Source: Caulobacter henricii (GTDB lineage: Bacteria > Pseudomonadota > Alphaproteobacteria > Caulobacterales > Caulobacteraceae). From it: a DNA stretch of 64,000 nt. The notes under the pieces are model-generated. The model was not told the DNA's origin, ran no database searches, and was given only the letters and a program-made list of their open reading frames with translations. Below, in pieces: positions 1 to 24,442 of this stretch. Where the stretch lies: assembly GCF_001414055.1 (NCBI RefSeq), contig NZ_CP013002.1, positions 930,001 through 994,000 on the forward strand. Reading direction: 5' to 3'. The position numbers and the translations under genes were made by a program. Each line of letters opens with the position of its first letter. Within the stretch, counting starts at the first letter, position 1.

Positions 1-2560
<2,560 letters not shown>

Positions 2561-13071: not shown

Positions 13072-14028
13072 TTAGGCCCGCATCGTCTCGGCATAGAGCT
13101 TCAGCAGCCCAGCCTCGTCCACCGCCACGGTGACGGCCTGGATCGGCAGGTCGTCCCAGGCTGACGGCCCGAACAGTTCGCCTTCGGCCTTCTGGCAGGT
13201 CTGGCCGAGGGCGATGCCCTCGGTGACCACGCGCACCGAGCCGCGCCGTACCGAAAACAGCGACGGATCGATCACATAGGCCGCCGCCGCCGCGTCGTGC
13301 ACGCAACAGCCGACCACTCCGTCTCGCTCGCCATAGAAGGCGGCATAGGGCTTGGAGATGGCGTTCAGGAACTGGCCCGCCGGGCCGGCTGACGCCTCCA
13401 GGGCATCCATATAGGTCGGCGACATTACCACCTGGGTCGTGACGTCCAGGCTGACTGCGGTCAGGGGCCAGGGGGCGGTGAAGACCTGGTCGGCGGCCTC
13501 GGGATCGTTCCAGATATTGGCTTCGGCGACCGGCGTGACATTGCCGGGCTTGCCGGCCAGGCCGAACGCCCCGCCCATGATCACCACGGCCTTCAGCAGC
13601 CGGGTGACCTCAGGGTCGGCCTGCAGGGCCAGGGCCAGGTTGGTCAGGGGGCCGACAGCGACCAGGGTCACTTCGCCGGGATACTGTCGCGCGATGTCGA
13701 TGATGGCCTGATGGGCCGGCTTGGCTTCAGGCTGGGCCGGAACAAGACCTGTCAGCTCCACGTCGCCCAGACCGTTCTCGCCGTGCACGAAGGTGGGCGA
13801 GGGGTTGCGGGGGCGGGTCAGCGGCTTTTCGGTGCCCTTGTAGATCGGTGCCGTCAGGCCGAAACGCTGCTTCAGATAGAGCGCGTTGCGGGTCGTGGTC
13901 TCGATGTCGGCATTGCCGTAGATCGTGGTGATGGCCAGCAGGTCGAGGTCTGGGCTGGCCTCGATGAACAGCAGGGCCATGGCATCGTCGATGCCGGGAT
14001 CAGTGTCGAAAATGATCTTGTGCGTCAT
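13072..14028 (-). CDS. inosine/uridine-preferring nucleoside hydrolase
   Basis: 318 aa. It cleaves nucleosides to base and ribose, supplying purine bases. The N-terminal calcium-binding signature IIFDTDPGIDDA is clear (about 5-16), followed by the family strand LLAITTIYGNA (about 31-41); later the central LVAVGPLTNLALAL and VIMGGAF are seen. The His-Asp near residue 243 (CCVHDAAAAAYV) fits the catalytic region. Start codon ATG, 9 bp after hpxZ, so it is the fourth gene of the hpxXYZ operon. Substrate preference cannot be told from sequence. Confidence 0.93.
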   Translation of the reverse strand: MTHKIIFDTDPGIDDAMALLFIEASPDLDLLAITTIYGNADIETTTRNALYLKQRFGLTAPIYKGTEKPLTRPRNPSPTFVHGENGLGDVELTGLVPAQPEAKPAHQAIIDIARQYPGEVTLVAVGPLTNLALALQADPEVTRLLKAVVIMGGAFGLAGKPGNVTPVAEANIWNDPEAADQVFTAPWPLTAVSLDVTTQVVMSPTYMDALEASAGPAGQFLNAISKPYAAFYGERDGVVGCCVHDAAAAAYVIDPSLFSVRRGSVRVVTEGIALGQTCQKAEGELFGPSAWDDLPIQAVTVAVDEAGLLKLYAETMRA

Positions 14029-14037
14029 GGGCAGGCT

Positions 14038-14454
14038 CTAGCGGTTTTCGGGCAGGGAGGCGAGGCGCTGGTCGGCCCCGGCCTGCAGGATGGAGACGTG
14101 GGCGGAGGCGATCTTCCAGCCCTCGGCGGTGCGGATCCAGGTCTGGCTTTGGCGGCCGATGCTCTCGGCCCCCTCGCGCCGGAACTCGACATGGGCGATG
14201 GCGAGGTCGGACCCGAAGGTGGTGATCTCGGTGCGGAGCCGGGTCCGCAAGGGAGAACCGCCGGCGCGCCCCTTGCGGAAAGCGGCAATGGCTTCAAAGC
14301 CATAGAGGTTTTCAGCGACCCCCAGCCGGACCGTGTGCGGCGAATTCCAGAAGGCCCCGTCGAGGGCTTCGAGGTCATTGCCCATCAGCGCGGTCTCATA
14401 GGCGTCGACCGCCGCTGTCACGGCCGCCAGGGCCACAGGATCGTTGAGGATCAC
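14038..14454 (-). CDS. hpxZ: HpxZ/AtzH-like protein (DUF3225, SnoaL fold)
   Basis: 138 aa with an NTF2/SnoaL-like fold: an acidic helix-rich start, FWNSPHTVRLGVAENLYG, then the strand-rich end SQTWIRTAEGWKIASAHVS. Close in character to HpxZ of Klebsiella purine catabolism and AtzH of the cyanuric acid pathway; both accompany an AtzE-type amidase and their exact role is unsettled. The start is a GTG whose GTGA overlaps the end of hpxY by 4 nt. An upstream extension of the frame is the shadow of hpxY. Confidence 0.85.
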   Translation of the reverse strand: MILNDPVALAAVTAAVDAYETALMGNDLEALDGAFWNSPHTVRLGVAENLYGFEAIAAFRKGRAGGSPLRTRLRTEITTFGSDLAIAHVEFRREGAESIGRQSQTWIRTAEGWKIASAHVSILQAGADQRLASLPENR

Positions 14455-15845
14455 GGCAGGTCTCCCGGCGGATGGGCGGCCACGACGCCCAGGCGTTGCA
14501 GGCGCAGACCCGCAGCCAGGGCCAGATCCTCGCGCCAGGCCGGTGCGATGATCTGGACGCCGATCGGCAGCTGGCCCGGACGGTTGACCGGTGCGGCCAG
14601 CACCGGCAGGCCGGCATAGCTGATCGGCTGGGTAAAGACGCCGAGGTTCTTGCGCACCGATACCCTCTGGCCGCCCATCTCCATCTCGGTCTGGCCGATC
14701 GGCGGCGCCGGGCACACCGAGGACGGGGCCAGCAGAATGTCAAACTGCGCGAAGGCGCGGCGGACCTCGTCGCGGAAGAGGGTGCGATAGCGGCGGGCGG
14801 CGTCCGCGAGGCTGGCCGGCAGCAGGGCCCCAGCCAGGAGCCGGTCACGGACCGCCGGATCAAAGTCCATCGCCGCAGAGCGCAGGTCGGCCAGGTGCAG
14901 GTGCGCAGCCTCGACCGGGGTCAGGCAGAAGGCGGCCGCCCGGGCTGCCTGGGCCCCCGGCAGGATCACGCGATCCCGGGCGTCCAGCGCCTTGGCGACG
15001 ATGTCGAGTGTTTCCAGCACCTCGGGAAAGGCCCCTTGGGCAAACCAGCCGCCCAGTATCCCGACCCGCAAGGGGCCGTCGGCCAGGGCCGTGATTCTGT
15101 CCGACACCGGCTCGGCGGCGCGCGTGCAGATTGCGTCACCTTCCACGTCGGGCCCCTGCATCAGGTCATAGGCCAGGGCCAGATCCTCGACCGAGCGGGC
15201 GAAGGCACCGGCATGGTCCAGGCTCTCGACGAACGGGAAGACGCCCTGGCGCGACAGCCGGCCATAGGTGGGCTTGAGGCCAAACACCCCGCATAGGCTG
15301 GCGGGGATGCGGACCGAGCCATTGGTGTCCGAGCCCAGGGTCAGGGGCACCAGGCCCGCCGCCACGGCTGCCGCCGAACCACCTGATGATCCGCCGGCAA
15401 TCCGGGTCAGGTCATGGGGATTGCGGGTCGGGCCGTCATGGGCGTTCTCGGTGACGAAGCCATAGGCGAACTCGTCCATGTTCAGCGCGCCGACCAGTAT
15501 GGCCCCGGCCGCTTCCAGGCGCTGGACCAGGGTGGCGTCATGGGTTGGCGGAGCGGCCTGGCGACGGATCTTCGAGCCGGCCAGGGTCGGCAGACCCTCG
15601 ATGTCGAACAGGTTCTTTACCGCGAAGGGCACCCCGGCCATGGGCCCAACCGGATCGCCGGCGGCGAGGGCGGCGTCAATCCTGTCCGCCCGGGCGAGGG
15701 CCCGGTCGGTGAGCACCGCCGTAAAGGCATTGATCGCAGCCTGGCTTTGGTCAATGCCGGCCAGGGTCGCCTCGGTCACGGCGCGGGCCGTGCGGCGACC
15801 GCTGCGGACCTGGCCGGCGATCTCGACGAGGCTGGCAAAGGTCAT
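14451..15845 (-). CDS. hpxY: AtzE/HpxY-family amidase
   Basis: 464-aa amidase-signature hydrolase. The Ser-cisSer-Lys triad is visible: Lys in VPFAVKNLFD (about 78), Ser in GGSSGGSAAAVA (about 153) and the nucleophile in GSDTNGSVRIPA (about 177). Together with a GatC-like small partner (hpxX) and an AtzH-like protein, this is the layout of atzG-atzE-atzH and hpxX-hpxY-hpxZ. In Klebsiella those genes serve oxalurate/oxamate use at the end of purine breakdown. Here pucG supplies oxalurate, so hydrolysis of oxalurate or a derivative is the best inference; 1-carboxybiuret-type substrates remain possible. ATGA overlap with hpxX. Confidence 0.88.
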   Translation of the reverse strand: MTFASLVEIAGQVRSGRRTARAVTEATLAGIDQSQAAINAFTAVLTDRALARADRIDAALAAGDPVGPMAGVPFAVKNLFDIEGLPTLAGSKIRRQAAPPTHDATLVQRLEAAGAILVGALNMDEFAYGFVTENAHDGPTRNPHDLTRIAGGSSGGSAAAVAAGLVPLTLGSDTNGSVRIPASLCGVFGLKPTYGRLSRQGVFPFVESLDHAGAFARSVEDLALAYDLMQGPDVEGDAICTRAAEPVSDRITALADGPLRVGILGGWFAQGAFPEVLETLDIVAKALDARDRVILPGAQAARAAAFCLTPVEAAHLHLADLRSAAMDFDPAVRDRLLAGALLPASLADAARRYRTLFRDEVRRAFAQFDILLAPSSVCPAPPIGQTEMEMGGQRVSVRKNLGVFTQPISYAGLPVLAAPVNRPGQLPIGVQIIAPAWREDLALAAGLRLQRLGVVAAHPPGDLP

Positions 15846-16060
15846 GGCGTGAAGGTCTCGGGGGCATCGTCGCCGGCCTCGGCCAGAGCGGTGACGAAGA
15901 CCGCGGCCTGCAGGCGCAGCAGGGACAGGTTCTCGCCGATGGCCTGTAGCGTCGGCTCCGGCAGGGTCAGGTCCAGCTCCGCCGCCCGGGTCAGGGCAAA
16001 GGCGGCGACCTCGTCGTCCCTGAGGTTCAGAAAGGCATTGAGCGCCACATCGATCGCCAT
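15842..16060 (-). CDS. hpxX: HpxX/AtzG-like small subunit (DUF4089, GatC-like)
   Basis: 72 aa, mostly helical, with LQAIGENLSLLRLQAAVF in the middle and an acidic end. AtzG-type proteins resemble GatC and wrap around the AtzE amidase as an obligate partner. The ATG at 16060 is chosen, with GGGAGAG about 11-17 nt upstream; a TTG in the same frame at 16078 is possible. Its stop overlaps the hpxY start as ATGA. First gene of hpxX-hpxY-hpxZ-nucleoside hydrolase. Operator site B lies 16 bp before the start. Confidence 0.82.
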   Translation of the reverse strand: MAIDVALNAFLNLRDDEVAAFALTRAAELDLTLPEPTLQAIGENLSLLRLQAAVFVTALAEAGDDAPETFTP

Positions 16061-16075: not shown

Positions 16076-16097
16076 CAAGTAAGAAAATTCTTCATAT
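16076..16097. promoter_or_regulatory. predicted purine-regulon operator, site B
   Basis: Plus strand: CAAGT, 12 nt (AAGAAAATTCTT), CATAT. It keeps all eight invariant positions of the motif. It lies 16-37 bp upstream of the hpxX ATG, where it would overlap or sit just downstream of the promoter, consistent with repression. Confidence 0.65.
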
Positions 16098-16275: not shown

Positions 16276-16297
16276 GGTGTAATAAAGGGCTTACTTA
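16276..16297. promoter_or_regulatory. predicted purine-regulon operator, site C
   Basis: Plus strand: GGTGT, 12 nt (AATAAAGGGCTT), ACTTA, immediately before the ATG at 16298. All eight invariant positions are kept. The only Shine-Dalgarno-like stretch of the downstream gene (AAAGGG) lies inside the site. Confidence 0.7.
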
Positions 16298-17245
16298 ATG
16301 CACCACCGGCTTGCTTCCACCCCCGAGACCATCCGCTTTGGCATGTTCGATGCGGCCTTCGACCCGGTCCTGACCATTGCTTCGGGCGACAGCGTCACCT
16401 TTGAGTGCGTGTCCGGCGGTGTCGAGGTAATGCCGGCACCGGGCAGCGGCCTGAGCATTCCGCCGGCCCTGCAGGCCATCCACGACGCCAGGCCCGAGCG
16501 GATCGGGCCCCACATCCTGACCGGCCCGGTGGCCATCGCCGGGGCCGAGCCGGGCGACACCCTGGAGGTGCGGATCGAGGCGGTGGAGCCCAACAACGAC
16601 TGGGGCTATTGCGCCGTCCGCCCCCTGGCCGGGACCCTGCCGGAGGACTTCTCCGAACGCTATGTCAGCCATATCGCGGTCGATCGCGCGACGGGGACCT
16701 GCAAGCCCGACTGGGGGCCGACCCTGCCGCTGAAGCCGTTTTTCGGCACCATGGGCGTGGCCCCGCCGGCCCGCTATGGCCGCCTGTCCAGCCGCGAGCC
16801 GCGCGAGCACGGCGGCAATATGGACAACAAGGAGCTGGGGGCCGGCGCGACCCTGTTCCTGCCGGTCTGGGTTCCGGGCGCCAACTTCTCGGTCGGCGAC
16901 GGCCATGGCCGCCAGGGCGATGGCGAGGTCTGCGTCAATGCGCTGGAGATGGGCCTGACCGGGACCTTCACCTTCGTGCTGCACAAGGCGGCCGATCTGG
17001 GCGTGGCGATCTGGCCGCGCGCCGAGACCCCGACCCACTACATCGTCATGGGCTTCCACGAGGATCTCGACCTGGCGATGAAACAGGCCCTGCGCGGCAT
17101 GATCGACTTCATCACCGCCCGCTCGGCCCTGACCAGCGTCCAGGCCTACCAGTTCTGCTCCCTGGCCGTGGACTTCCGCGTCACCCAGACGGTGAATGGC
17201 GAGAAGGGCGTGCATGGCATGCTGGAGAAGGGTGTGCTTTTCTGA
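16298..17245 (+). CDS. acetamidase/formamidase family amidase (FmdA/AmdA)
   Basis: 315 aa. The family hydrolyses short amides such as formamide and acetamide to ammonia and the acid. Seen: IASGDSVTFECVSGG near the start, HILTGPVAIAGAEPGDTL (about 70-87), NMDNKELGAGATLFLPV (about 170) and the signature GDGHGRQGDGEV (about 205). The length fits. It is a single gene on the plus strand with purine operator C abutting its start, so its substrate is probably made in purine breakdown: oxamate, formamide or a carbamoyl compound are candidates. It could supply the step done by HpxW elsewhere; that is inference only. Confidence 0.9.
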   Translation: MHHRLASTPETIRFGMFDAAFDPVLTIASGDSVTFECVSGGVEVMPAPGSGLSIPPALQAIHDARPERIGPHILTGPVAIAGAEPGDTLEVRIEAVEPNNDWGYCAVRPLAGTLPEDFSERYVSHIAVDRATGTCKPDWGPTLPLKPFFGTMGVAPPARYGRLSSREPREHGGNMDNKELGAGATLFLPVWVPGANFSVGDGHGRQGDGEVCVNALEMGLTGTFTFVLHKAADLGVAIWPRAETPTHYIVMGFHEDLDLAMKQALRGMIDFITARSALTSVQAYQFCSLAVDFRVTQTVNGEKGVHGMLEKGVLF

Positions 17246-20680: not shown

Positions 20681-21595
20681 TCATTTGGAGGCCACCTCAT
20701 ACGGATGCGTATTCAGCCAGTGCCGGGCGATATCGATCCGCCGGGCCACCCAGACCTTGTCGTGGGCCATCACATGCTCGAGGAAGCGCCGGAGACCCAG
20801 GATCCGTCCGGGCTTGCCGACCACGCGGCAGTGCAGGCCGATGCTCATCATCTTCGGCGCGGTCTCGCCCTCGACATAGAGGGCGTCGAAGGCGTCGCGC
20901 AGATAGGTGAAAAAGTGCTCGCCGGTGTTGAAGCCCTGGGCCGCCGTGAAGCGCATGTCGTTGGCTTCCAGCGTGTAGGGCACGATCAGCTGCGGGCGGC
21001 CGTGCTGGGCGTCGTAGTAGGGCAGGTCGTCGGCATAGCTGTCGGCGTCATAGACGAAGCCGCCGTCCTGGGCGATCAGCCGCGCGGTGTTGGGGCTGGT
21101 GCGGCCCTGATACCAGCCCAGCGGTCGCTCGCCGGTCAGGCGGGTCTGGATCTCGATGGCCTTGCCGATGTGCTCCAGTTCCTTGTCGGGCGTGAAATGC
21201 TGGTAGTCGATCCAGCGATAGCCGTGGCTGGCGATTTCCCAGCCGGACTCCATCATCGCCTCGACCGCGTCGGGATGGCGCTCCATCGCCTGGGCGACGC
21301 CGAACACGGTCAGCGGCAGGCCCAGCTCGTCGAACAGCCGGCGGATGCGCCAGAACCCGGCCCGCGAGCCGTATTCGTAGAGGCTCTCCATCGACATGTT
21401 GCGCATGCCCTCGATGGGCTGGGCCCCGACCATTTCCGACAGGAAGAACTCGGAGGCGGGGTCGCCATGCAGGATCGAGCGCTCGGCGCCTTCCTCGTAG
21501 TTGAGGACGAACTGAACGGCGATCCGGGCGCCGCTAGGCCATTGGGCGTGGGGCGGGGTGGCGCCGTAGCCGATGAGGTCGCGGGGGTAGGTCAT
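20681..21595 (-). CDS. puuE: allantoinase PuuE (polysaccharide-deacetylase fold)
   Basis: 304 aa. It hydrolyses allantoin to allantoate. This is the cofactor-independent PuuE type rather than the amidohydrolase AllB. Motifs include QFVLNYEEGAERSILHGD (about 28-45), FGVAQAMERHP, GWEIASHGYRWIDYQ (about 118-132), GWYQGRTSPNT and IGLHCRVVGKPGR near 250. The length matches the family. Start ATG at 21595. It lies between two intergenic repeats but in line with uraD and pucG. Confidence 0.94.
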   Translation of the reverse strand: MTYPRDLIGYGATPPHAQWPSGARIAVQFVLNYEEGAERSILHGDPASEFFLSEMVGAQPIEGMRNMSMESLYEYGSRAGFWRIRRLFDELGLPLTVFGVAQAMERHPDAVEAMMESGWEIASHGYRWIDYQHFTPDKELEHIGKAIEIQTRLTGERPLGWYQGRTSPNTARLIAQDGGFVYDADSYADDLPYYDAQHGRPQLIVPYTLEANDMRFTAAQGFNTGEHFFTYLRDAFDALYVEGETAPKMMSIGLHCRVVGKPGRILGLRRFLEHVMAHDKVWVARRIDIARHWLNTHPYEVASK

Positions 21596-21731: not shown

Positions 21732-22955
21732 TCACGAATACACCTTCGCCGCCGCATCGACTCCAGCCCCCGGCGTCGCCGAGAAGCCCTCCCACCGCAG
21801 CACCGCCTCCAGGGCTGCCAGGGTGGTCAGCACCGCGTGTTTGCGGGCATTGACCCCCATCGCCCCGATCCGCCAGATCTTGCCGGTCAGCGGGCCGAAC
21901 GCCGTGCCGATCTCGATCTCGAATTCGGTGCGCATGCGGGCCCGCACGCGGTCGCCGTCGATGCCGGCCGGGATCCAGATGCCGGTGACGTTGGTCATCT
22001 TGTGGGCCGGGTCGCCGTAGACGCTCAAACCCATCGCCTCGACCCCGGCGACCACGGCGGCGCCGGCCGAGGCGTGGCGGGCGAAGCGGGCGTCCAGGCC
22101 CTCCTCCAGCGCGACGCGGGCGCATTCGCGGGCGGCGTAGAGCATGCTGGCCGCCTCGGTGTGGTGGTTCAGGCGCTTGTCGGACCAGTAGTCCATGATC
22201 ATCGCCAGGTCGAAATAGTTGGAGGCGATGCGGCGGCCCGCGCCGCTGACCGCGCCCGCCGTGGCGATGCCACGCTCGACATGCTTGCGGCCGGCGATGT
22301 GCTCGGCGGCACGGTCGCTGATCGTGATCGGGGCCGAGCCCGACGGACCGCCCAGGCACTTCTGCAGGCCGGCGGTGACGATGTCGGCCTGCCACTGGTC
22401 CACCGGACACGGCATGCCGGCCAGGGTGGCGGTGGCGTCGACATAGAGCAGGGCGTCATGCCGGCGGCAGATCTCGCCGATGGCCTCGATCGGCTGGGCC
22501 ATGGTGGTCGAGGTGTCGCCGTGCACGCAGGCCACCAGGCGCGGCTTGACCCGCGCCACGGCGTCTTCGACGGCCTGAGGATCGATGACCTTGCCCCATT
22601 CGCCCTCGACCAGGGTGACCCTGGCGTCGCAGCGCTCGGCGATCTCGGACAGCAGAAGACCAAAGCGGCCGGCATTGACCACCACCACGTCGTCGCCCGG
22701 GGCCAGCACCGAGACCAGGGCCGCCTCGATCCCGGCGCGCGAAGTGCCGTCGACCAGGAAGGTCCAGCGGTTCTGCGTCTGGAAGACCTGGCGGTACAGG
22801 GCCATGGTCTCGTTCATATAGCCGGTGAATTCCGGGTCGAACTGGCCCAGCAACTGGACGGACATGGCGCGCAGCACGCGCGGATGCACATTGATCGGGC
22901 CGGGGCCCATCAGCAGGCGGGGCGGGTGGTCGAGGTCTTTGAAAGTGTCGGTCAT
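21732..22955 (-). CDS. pucG: (S)-ureidoglycine-glyoxylate aminotransferase
   Basis: 407-aa class V PLP aminotransferase. It moves the amino group of ureidoglycine to glyoxylate, giving oxalurate and glycine. Seen: LMGPGPINVHPRVLRAMS (about 15), DGTSRAGIEAAL (about 69), VHGDTSTTM (about 144) and the PLP lysine in TAGLQKCLGGPSG (about 190-202). Alanine-glyoxylate transaminases are close relatives, but position between allC and puuE favours PucG. The ATG at 22955 begins MTDTFKDLDHPPRLL; the open frame upstream is a shadow of allC. Confidence 0.9.
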   Translation of the reverse strand: MTDTFKDLDHPPRLLMGPGPINVHPRVLRAMSVQLLGQFDPEFTGYMNETMALYRQVFQTQNRWTFLVDGTSRAGIEAALVSVLAPGDDVVVVNAGRFGLLLSEIAERCDARVTLVEGEWGKVIDPQAVEDAVARVKPRLVACVHGDTSTTMAQPIEAIGEICRRHDALLYVDATATLAGMPCPVDQWQADIVTAGLQKCLGGPSGSAPITISDRAAEHIAGRKHVERGIATAGAVSGAGRRIASNYFDLAMIMDYWSDKRLNHHTEAASMLYAARECARVALEEGLDARFARHASAGAAVVAGVEAMGLSVYGDPAHKMTNVTGIWIPAGIDGDRVRARMRTEFEIEIGTAFGPLTGKIWRIGAMGVNARKHAVLTTLAALEAVLRWEGFSATPGAGVDAAAKVYS

Positions 22956-22980: not shown

Positions 22981-23068
22981 CGCCCTTCGACGGGCTCAGG
23001 ATGAGGGCTACGGACAGGTCCTTGAGGCAGGGCATTCGAGATCCTCACCCTGAGCCTGTCGAAGGGCG
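22981..23068. repeat. inverted repeat of the CCCTTCGACAGGCTCAGG family
   Basis: Arm 22981-23006 and arm 23043-23068, 24 of 26 positions complementary, 36 bp apart. The second arm overlaps the 3' end of allC and provides its stop codon. This motif family is common between genes in G+C-rich alphaproteobacteria. Confidence 0.85.
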
Positions 23069-24442
23069 TGGATCTCGGTCCGCCAGCCTCTCCACGAACG
23101 CCAGCATCGCCTGCGCCGCCAGGGCACAATCGGCCTCGGTGACGGACTCGGCCGGATTGTGGCTGATCCCGCCCTCGCAGCGGATGAACAGCATGGCGGT
23201 GGGGCAGAGGTCGGCCATCACCATGGCGTCGTGGCCCGCCCCGCTGGGCAGGCGGCGGACGGGCAGGCCGAGGTCGCCGACGGCCGATTCCAGCAGGGCC
23301 GTGAGATCCGGATCGCAGGGACTCTCGTCCAGGGCCTGCATCAGGGTGACAGTGGCCGTCAGGCCCCGCCGCGCGGCGATGGTGTGGATCTCGGTGGTGA
23401 TGGCCTCGACCGCCGCGTCGCGGGTCGCCGAGGTCTCGGCGCGGATGTCCATCGAGAATTCGACGGCGCCGGGAATGACGTTGAAGGCGCCGGGCAGGGC
23501 AGTCATGCGGCCGACCGTGCCGACCAGGTTGTCGGTCCCGGCCCGACAGATCCGCTCCAGGGCCAGGATGCACTCGGCGGCGGCGGGGCCGGGGTCCTTG
23601 CGCAGAGGCATGGGCGTGGTGCCGGCATGACCGGCCATGCCGGAGATCCGTACCATCAGCCGCTTCTGGGCCGCGATGGCGGTGACGACACCCAGGGCCA
23701 GGCCCTCGGCCTCCAGAACCGGGCCCTGCTCGATATGGGCTTCCAGAAAGGCGATGACGTCCGACGGCTTGCGGGCCGCCTCGGTGATCCGGGCCGGGTC
23801 GAGTCCGAAGGCGGTGAAGGCCTGCGCCAGGGTCACCCCCTCGGCGTCGATCATGCCCAGCACGGCGGCCGGATCCAGCGTGCCGGCCACGGCACGGCTG
23901 CAGCTCATCGAGGCGGCGAAGCGCGAGCCCTCCTCGTCGCCGAACGCGATGACCTCGAGGGCGAAGGGCAGGCGGCGGCCGGCATCGTGCAGGGCCTCGA
24001 TCAGGTCTACCCCCAGCAGGATCCCCAGCGGCCCATCATAGCGTCCGCCGTTGCGGACGCTGTCGATGTGCGAGCCGATCAGCAGGGCCGGAGCGTCGGG
24101 ACTGGCACCCTCATAGCGGCCGATCAGATTGCCGGCGGCGTCGCGGCGCACCGTCATGCCGGCTTCAGTGATCCACAGGCTGAGGGTGTCGAGGGCGGCG
24201 TCATGGGCGGGGCTCAGAAAGCGGCGCGTCAGCTGGCCGTCGACCTCGCTATAGGGCGGGACGCCCAGCAGGTCGCAACGCGCCTTGGCCCTGCCGCCCA
24301 TGTCAAACGCCCCCGTCACGCCGGTTTGACTCCGCTCCACAGCCCCGCTTGCCGTGGCGACCTTGGTAGCGCAGGCTGGGGTCAGCCGCGCGGCCCAGGG
24401 CAGGCGCAGGGCTGCATGGCCCGGCAATGCCTCGACAGGCAC
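23045..24442 (-). CDS. allC: allantoate amidohydrolase (M20 family)
   Basis: 465 aa. It hydrolyses allantoate to ureidoglycine, CO2 and ammonia. M20 zinc ligands are visible: the His and Asp in GSHIDSVRNGGRYDG (about 121-135), the Glu pair in GDEEGSRF (about 169) and the His in AHIEQGPVLEAEG (about 235). Homologous N-carbamoyl-amino-acid hydrolases are the alternative, but context fixes allantoate. The ATG at 24442 fits operator D 26 bp upstream. The last seven residues RPSTGSG and the stop come from a palindromic repeat, so the natural C-terminus has been altered or extended. First gene of the minus-strand operon. Confidence 0.92.
   Translation of the reverse strand: MPVEALPGHAALRLPWAARLTPACATKVATASGAVERSQTGVTGAFDMGGRAKARCDLLGVPPYSEVDGQLTRRFLSPAHDAALDTLSLWITEAGMTVRRDAAGNLIGRYEGASPDAPALLIGSHIDSVRNGGRYDGPLGILLGVDLIEALHDAGRRLPFALEVIAFGDEEGSRFAASMSCSRAVAGTLDPAAVLGMIDAEGVTLAQAFTAFGLDPARITEAARKPSDVIAFLEAHIEQGPVLEAEGLALGVVTAIAAQKRLMVRISGMAGHAGTTPMPLRKDPGPAAAECILALERICRAGTDNLVGTVGRMTALPGAFNVIPGAVEFSMDIRAETSATRDAAVEAITTEIHTIAARRGLTATVTLMQALDESPCDPDLTALLESAVGDLGLPVRRLPSGAGHDAMVMADLCPTAMLFIRCEGGISHNPAESVTEADCALAAQAMLAFVERLADRDPRPSTGSG

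What the first reader, a model, noticed from the sequence alone, without database searches (positions are those of the whole stretch)
16276..17245. FmdA-family amidase inside the purine regulon, possibly replacing HpxW
PucG makes oxalurate; hpxXYZ homologues are present, but the oxamate amidohydrolase HpxW (gamma-glutamyltransferase-like) of Klebsiella is absent from the window. A lone acetamidase/formamidase gene sits beside hpxX and carries operator C directly before its ATG. The simplest reading is that it handles a small amide formed in the pathway, such as oxamate or formamide.
Basis: inference. Interest (0 to 1): 0.7.

Follow-up and report, generated by a model that had tools for sequence, protein, structure and literature searches.

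The report
Formamidase-type enzyme replacing oxamate hydrolase HpxW
In Caulobacter and its relatives a gene of the acetamidase/formamidase family sits inside the uric-acid-breakdown regulon exactly where the usual last enzyme (the oxamate-splitting HpxW) is missing, which makes it the best candidate for an unrelated enzyme that does the same job.

Summary
Window 16298-17245 (+) encodes a 315-aa FmdA_AmdA protein, divergent from hpxXYZ, with a conserved operator (16277-16296) ending one base before its ATG. The genome has four gamma-glutamyltransferase paralogues, none in the HpxW clade. In 299 Caulobacteraceae genomes, all 47 with an fmdA orthologue have hpxZ. Of 58 hpxZ genomes, 47 have fmdA, 9 have true HpxW, none has both and 2 have neither. 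In one genus the corresponding uricolysis operon carries hpxW instead of fmdA. A second, different locus type (TetR, FAD oxidase, cupin, isochorismatase, hpxYZ) also exists in an hpxW version and in fmdA versions. In 50 other genomes with the fmdA subfamily, 32 have hpxZ and none of those 32 has HpxW. The likeliest reading is a non-orthologous replacement of HpxW: oxamate to oxalate plus ammonia. Activity is inferred, not shown. Limits: most non-Caulobacter copies are not next to hpx genes, 43 of 60 other hpxZ genomes have neither enzyme, the lineages are not independent, and the broader FmdA family does co-occur with HpxW.

The parts
16277..16296 (+). operator (GTAA-N8-TTAC palindrome) overlapping the ribosome-binding region of fmdA
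   Evidence: same offset from the ATG in 18 of 24 upstream regions
16298..17245 (+). fmdA-type amidase, 315 aa, proposed oxamate amidohydrolase
16077..16096 (.). operator before hpxX
   Evidence: kept in Caulobacter loci
15842..16060 (-). hpxX-like small ORF (72 aa from ATG); identity by position only
   Evidence: no Pfam match
14451..15845 (-). hpxY (AtzE-family amidase)
   Evidence: TIGR02715 706 bits
14038..14454 (-). hpxZ
   Evidence: NF033625 161 bits, cut-off 135
13072..14028 (-). nucleoside hydrolase downstream of hpxZ
   Evidence: PF01156
17338..18012 (+). YceI-like protein downstream of fmdA, link uncertain
   Evidence: PF04264
18141..18821 (-). TetR-family regulator (TetR_C_29), proposed to bind the operators
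   Evidence: homologues at the fmdA/hpxYZ locus L169 and at the hpxW locus L072
18818..20005 (-). puuD membrane urate oxidase
   Evidence: PF06181
20005..20580 (-). uraD (OHCU decarboxylase), read from sequence; not run through a family library
   Evidence: own knowledge
20681..21595 (-). puuE allantoinase, read from sequence; not run through a family library
   Evidence: own knowledge
21732..22955 (-). pucG-like aminotransferase (ureidoglycine to oxalurate)
   Evidence: and aminotransferase matches; specific name from own knowledge
23045..24442 (-). M20 hydrolase, presumed allantoate amidohydrolase
   Evidence: PF01546
24470..24489 (.). operator before the M20-pucG-puuE-uraD-puuD-tetR gene run
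   Evidence: kept in relatives

Best explanation
The gene encodes an FmdA/AmdA-fold amidase recruited into the uricolysis regulon as a non-orthologous replacement of HpxW. Inferred route: urate, via PuuD, UraD and PuuE, to allantoate; M20 hydrolase to ureidoglycine; PucG to oxalurate; HpxXY removes the terminal carbamoyl nitrogen to leave oxamate; the FmdA-type enzyme hydrolyses oxamate to oxalate and ammonia, freeing the last purine nitrogen. A TetR-family repressor encoded with puuD is proposed to hold hpxXYZ, fmdA and the M20-pucG-puuE operon off through GTAA-N8-TTAC operators. Shown here: gene identity, operator conservation, co-occurrence with hpxZ, mutual exclusion with HpxW. Inferred: the substrate, each step of the route, and the regulator-operator pairing.
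For: 47/47 fmdA orthologues co-occur with hpxZ; 43 of the 44 pairs on one contig sit 1.7-1.9 kb apart, divergent. Of 58 hpxZ genomes: 47 fmdA, 9 HpxW, 0 both. In genus g277 (L158-L161, L163, L165) the corresponding operon is hpxY-hpxW-M20-pucG-puuE-hpxZ-uraD with no fmdA. HpxWs of this kind have Klebsiella HpxW (5hft) as best solved match. A second locus type (FAD oxidase, CocE-like hydrolase, cupin, isochorismatase, hpxYZ, TetR) carries HpxW in L072 and FmdA in L169; the related L205 has cupin, isochorismatase, hpxY, hpxZ and fmdA head to tail. Outside the family, 32 of 50 genomes with the subfamily have hpxZ (class background 52 of 387) and 0 of the 32 have HpxW. Conserved operator. Motif residues of GGN-D and GDGH--QGDGE are invariant across the FmdAs compared.
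Against: No activity data. Genomes are related, so counts are not independent; the hpx-linked FmdAs fall in one supported 18-row clade. Most subfamily members in Acetobacteraceae are not next to hpx genes. Broader FmdA (48-59% identity) occurs alongside HpxW in several genomes. 43 of 60 other hpxZ genomes have neither enzyme, so HpxW's step may be met otherwise or hpxZ may serve other routes. GGT4 of this genome (L004) is nearest 2nlz, an acylase-named GGT relative; PMC5270733 suggested a Bacillus GGT-type protein (YwrD) as an HpxW counterpart, so a GGT outside the HpxW clade could have oxamate activity. No oxalyl-CoA decarboxylase over cut-off was found, so the fate of oxalate is open.
Confidence: 0.68

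Rival explanations
1. The FmdA-type enzyme belongs to the HpxXYZ route but acts at another point, for example on oxalurate itself or on the N-carboxylated product of HpxXY before it loses CO2, so that the net result equals HpxXY plus HpxW.
For: The linkage is to hpxXYZ as a unit in two locus types; exclusion with HpxW only shows that the end result is equivalent.
Against: HpxY is kept beside hpxZ in the fmdA loci examined, so the step before oxamate is already provided for.
Confidence: 0.15
2. An ordinary formamidase/acetamidase for nitrogen scavenging that happens to be co-regulated with purine breakdown.
For: Family membership; close relatives in Acetobacteraceae stand in unrelated surroundings.
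Against: 47/47 co-occurrence with hpxZ and no HpxW, and recurrence in a second hpx locus type, are not expected of a general scavenging enzyme; it scores 72 bits against a cut-off of 500 for the formamidase equivalog.
Confidence: 0.12
3. The exclusion is lineage history only: one ancestor lost hpxW and carried fmdA along, without functional replacement; another paralogue (such as GGT4) does the oxamate step.
For: One clade of hpx-linked FmdA; four GGT paralogues in the genome.
Against: The second locus type with hpxW and fmdA versions, and the hpxZ-positive, HpxW-negative pattern in non-Caulobacter genomes. No operator near any of the four GGT genes.
Confidence: 0.05

Closest known systems
HpxW, oxamate amidohydrolase of Klebsiella (PDB 5hft; cited in PMC5270733)
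   Same: Proposed reaction and place in the hpxXYZ/oxalurate route
   Different: HpxW is a gamma-glutamyltransferase-type enzyme (two chains in 5hft); this is FmdA/AmdA family and fold, with no sequence or fold relation found
FmdA_AmdA acetamidase/formamidase family (PF03069; PDB 3b9t, 2f4l, 2ii1, 3tkk)
   Same: Sequence family, predicted fold (Foldseek E down to 5e-25), conserved motifs
   Different: Located in a purine regulon, tied to hpxXYZ; far below the formamidase equivalog cut-off
E. coli AllFGH oxamic transcarbamylase branch (PMC11326118)
   Same: Another way from oxalurate to oxamate
   Different: There oxamate is not metabolised further; no FmdA or HpxW step

Membership tests
FmdA_AmdA (PF03069) | Profile score over the curated cut-off | tested here: met
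   125.3 bits, cut-off 27
FmdA_AmdA (PF03069) | Acetamidase/formamidase fold | tested here: met
   AlphaFold2 model pLDDT 84; all 16 PDB matches at E<=0.001 belong to this family. Whole-chain rmsd was mostly about 12 A, so the relative placing of parts of the model is not reliable
Formamidase FmdA equivalog (NF045496) | Score over 500 bits | tested here: not met
   72.2 bits
HpxW | GGT-type sequence within the HpxW clade | tested here: not met
   The protein is of another family; HpxWs form their own 100/100 clade without any GGT of this genome
Oxamate amidohydrolase (function) | Hydrolysis of oxamate | not testable with these tools
   Needs an enzyme assay
hpxXYZ oxalurate module | AtzE-type HpxY and HpxZ together | tested here: met
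   Both over cut-off
hpxXYZ oxalurate module | Small HpxX subunit | tested here: inconclusive
   A 72-aa ORF in the right place overlapping hpxY, but no profile match even at E 10

The most novel reading that the evidence does not exclude
A subfamily of FmdA/AmdA amidases is a second, unrelated class of oxamate amidohydrolase that has displaced HpxW in Caulobacter and in many Acetobacteraceae with hpxXYZ.
Probability: 0.6. Interest if true: 0.6.

Novelty: new variant of a known kind. Interest (0 to 1): 0.56.

Why it matters
If true, it fills the last gap of purine-nitrogen recovery in Caulobacter (the control genome of C. vibrioides rings for both HpxZ and FmdA), gives a real substrate to part of a family annotated only as acetamidase/formamidase, and supplies a clear case of non-orthologous gene displacement that a single enzyme assay can confirm or kill. 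I found no paper in the open library linking FmdA to oxamate or to uricolysis, but most subscription papers are not held.

Tried and rejected
Looked for FmdA within about 9 kb of hpxZ in 60 class-level hpxZ loci: none. Looked for a general exclusion between any FmdA and HpxW: rejected, since 48-59% FmdA coexists with HpxW in several genomes. Looked for gene context of the Acetobacteraceae copies: cytochrome-oxidase, methionine-salvage-like and other unrelated neighbours, named from sequence by eye. Looked for an oxalyl-CoA decarboxylase: none over cut-off. Compared residues of hpx-linked against other FmdAs: T151 and E170, among others, stand out, but without a reliable ligand pose I draw no conclusion. 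The Klebsiella HpxW paper was not held.

Full report
The observation. The window lies in a 3.96-Mb, two-contig genome that groups with Caulobacter. ORF 16298-17245 (+) is a 315-aa FmdA_AmdA protein and the only member of that family in the genome. It is divergent from hpxX-hpxY-hpxZ (15842-16060, 14451-15845, 14038-14454, all -). HpxY is AtzE-type (706 bits) and HpxZ passes its curated cut-off; HpxX is assigned by position, no profile matched. On the other side lie a YceI-like gene, a TetR regulator, puuD, and genes read as uraD, puuE, pucG and an M20 hydrolase.

The operator. AAGTAAG-N6-CTTACTT (up to 3 mismatches) occurs four times in 64 kb against 0.09 expected: before hpxX (16077), before fmdA (16277, ending one base before the ATG), before the M20-pucG-puuE-uraD-puuD-tetR run (24470), and at 519, in what looks like rRNA, probably chance. 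The core GTAA-N8-TTAC sits at one fixed offset from the fmdA start in 18 of 24 upstream regions, and the hpxX and M20 sites recur in relatives. In the six regions without it, the start may be misplaced or the locus rearranged; in some such loci a copy lies near hpxZ instead.

HpxW is missing. The genome has four GGT genes. True HpxWs, taken from hpx loci L042 and L159, have Klebsiella HpxW 5hft as best solved match. The GGTs checked directly, L003 and L004, match other GGTs better. In a tree the HpxWs form one 100/100 clade without any of the four. No operator lies near these genes. L004 is nearest 2nlz; PMC5270733 suggested a Bacillus GGT-type protein, YwrD, as an HpxW counterpart, so L004 is the one internal rival I would test.

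The co-occurrence test. In 299 Caulobacteraceae genomes, FmdA orthologues at 74% identity or more number 47, with a gap down to one recombinant-looking 62% copy and then 49%. HpxZ over cut-off is in 58, HpxW in 15. All 47 fmdA genomes have hpxZ; of 58 hpxZ genomes, 47 have fmdA, 9 HpxW, none both, 2 neither. One of the two (G487) breaks off at a contig end where hpxW would lie. Where both genes are on one contig (44), they are on opposite strands, 1.7-1.9 kb apart in 43. Fisher p for exclusion among hpxZ genomes is 5e-9, but relatedness makes that figure nominal.

Replacement in place. In genus g277 the corresponding operon reads hpxY-hpxW-M20-pucG-puuE-hpxZ-uraD with xdh genes beside it and no fmdA. 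A second kind of locus, with FAD-linked oxidase, CocE-like hydrolase, cupin, isochorismatase-type hydrolase, hpxYZ and TetR, has HpxW in L072 but FmdA in L169; L205 is a related version with TetR, cupin, isochorismatase, hpxY, hpxZ and fmdA. In L205 hpxY, hpxZ and fmdA follow head to tail, and operator-like sites lie upstream.

Outside the family. A scan of bacterial genomes found the subfamily at 63-73% identity, chiefly in Acetobacteraceae and relatives, mostly in unrelated surroundings. Of 50 of these genomes, 32 have hpxZ over cut-off, against 52 of 387 in the class sample. HpxW at 50% or more occurs in one of the 50, which has no hpxZ. Pooled with Caulobacteraceae, 0 of 79 hpxZ genomes with this FmdA have HpxW, against 25 of 70 without it (samples drawn differently, so nominal). 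The limits: broader FmdA (48-59%) does coexist with HpxW, and 43 of 60 class-level hpxZ genomes have neither, so hpxZ is not a marker of this route alone.

Evolution and structure. Hpx-linked FmdAs fall in one supported 18-row clade (95/88) that also holds copies not next to hpx genes; one of the latter (L269) comes from a genome that has hpxZ and no HpxW. The model (pLDDT 84) matches only FmdA/AmdA structures at E<=0.001. Motif residues of GGN-D and GDGH--QGDGE are invariant in all FmdAs compared, so the protein looks catalytically competent.

Mechanism and verdict. From established knowledge of the pathway, PucG gives oxalurate, HpxXY oxamate, and HpxW hydrolyses oxamate to oxalate and ammonia (HpxW activity as cited in PMC5270733). 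The anatomy and the exclusion pattern make the FmdA-type enzyme the likely stand-in for that last step. The reaction, the regulator-operator pairing and the fate of oxalate remain inferences.

Noticed in passing
L205:5724-10948; L169:4345-12400; L072:2900-17000: A second hpx locus type: FAD-linked oxidase, CocE-like hydrolase, cupin, isochorismatase-type hydrolase, hpxYZ and TetR (not all in each), with hpxW or fmdA; its substrate is unknown.
   Followed up: partly
L171:5966-6901: In G676 (fragmented genome) the fmdA C-terminal half is near-identical to Caulobacter while the N-terminal half differs; recombination or assembly chimera.
   Followed up: no
L226, L234, L235, L239, L255 around the fmdA match: In several Acetobacteraceae-type loci the fmdA relative is flanked by amidase-signature genes in the same direction.
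   Followed up: no
window 519-538: A near-perfect operator match in a region that looks like rRNA at the start of the window; probably chance.
   Followed up: partly
L038-L097: hpxZ, often with an AtzE-type amidase, occurs in many alphaproteobacteria without HpxW or this FmdA, so hpxXYZ may serve routes other than uricolysis.
   Followed up: partly
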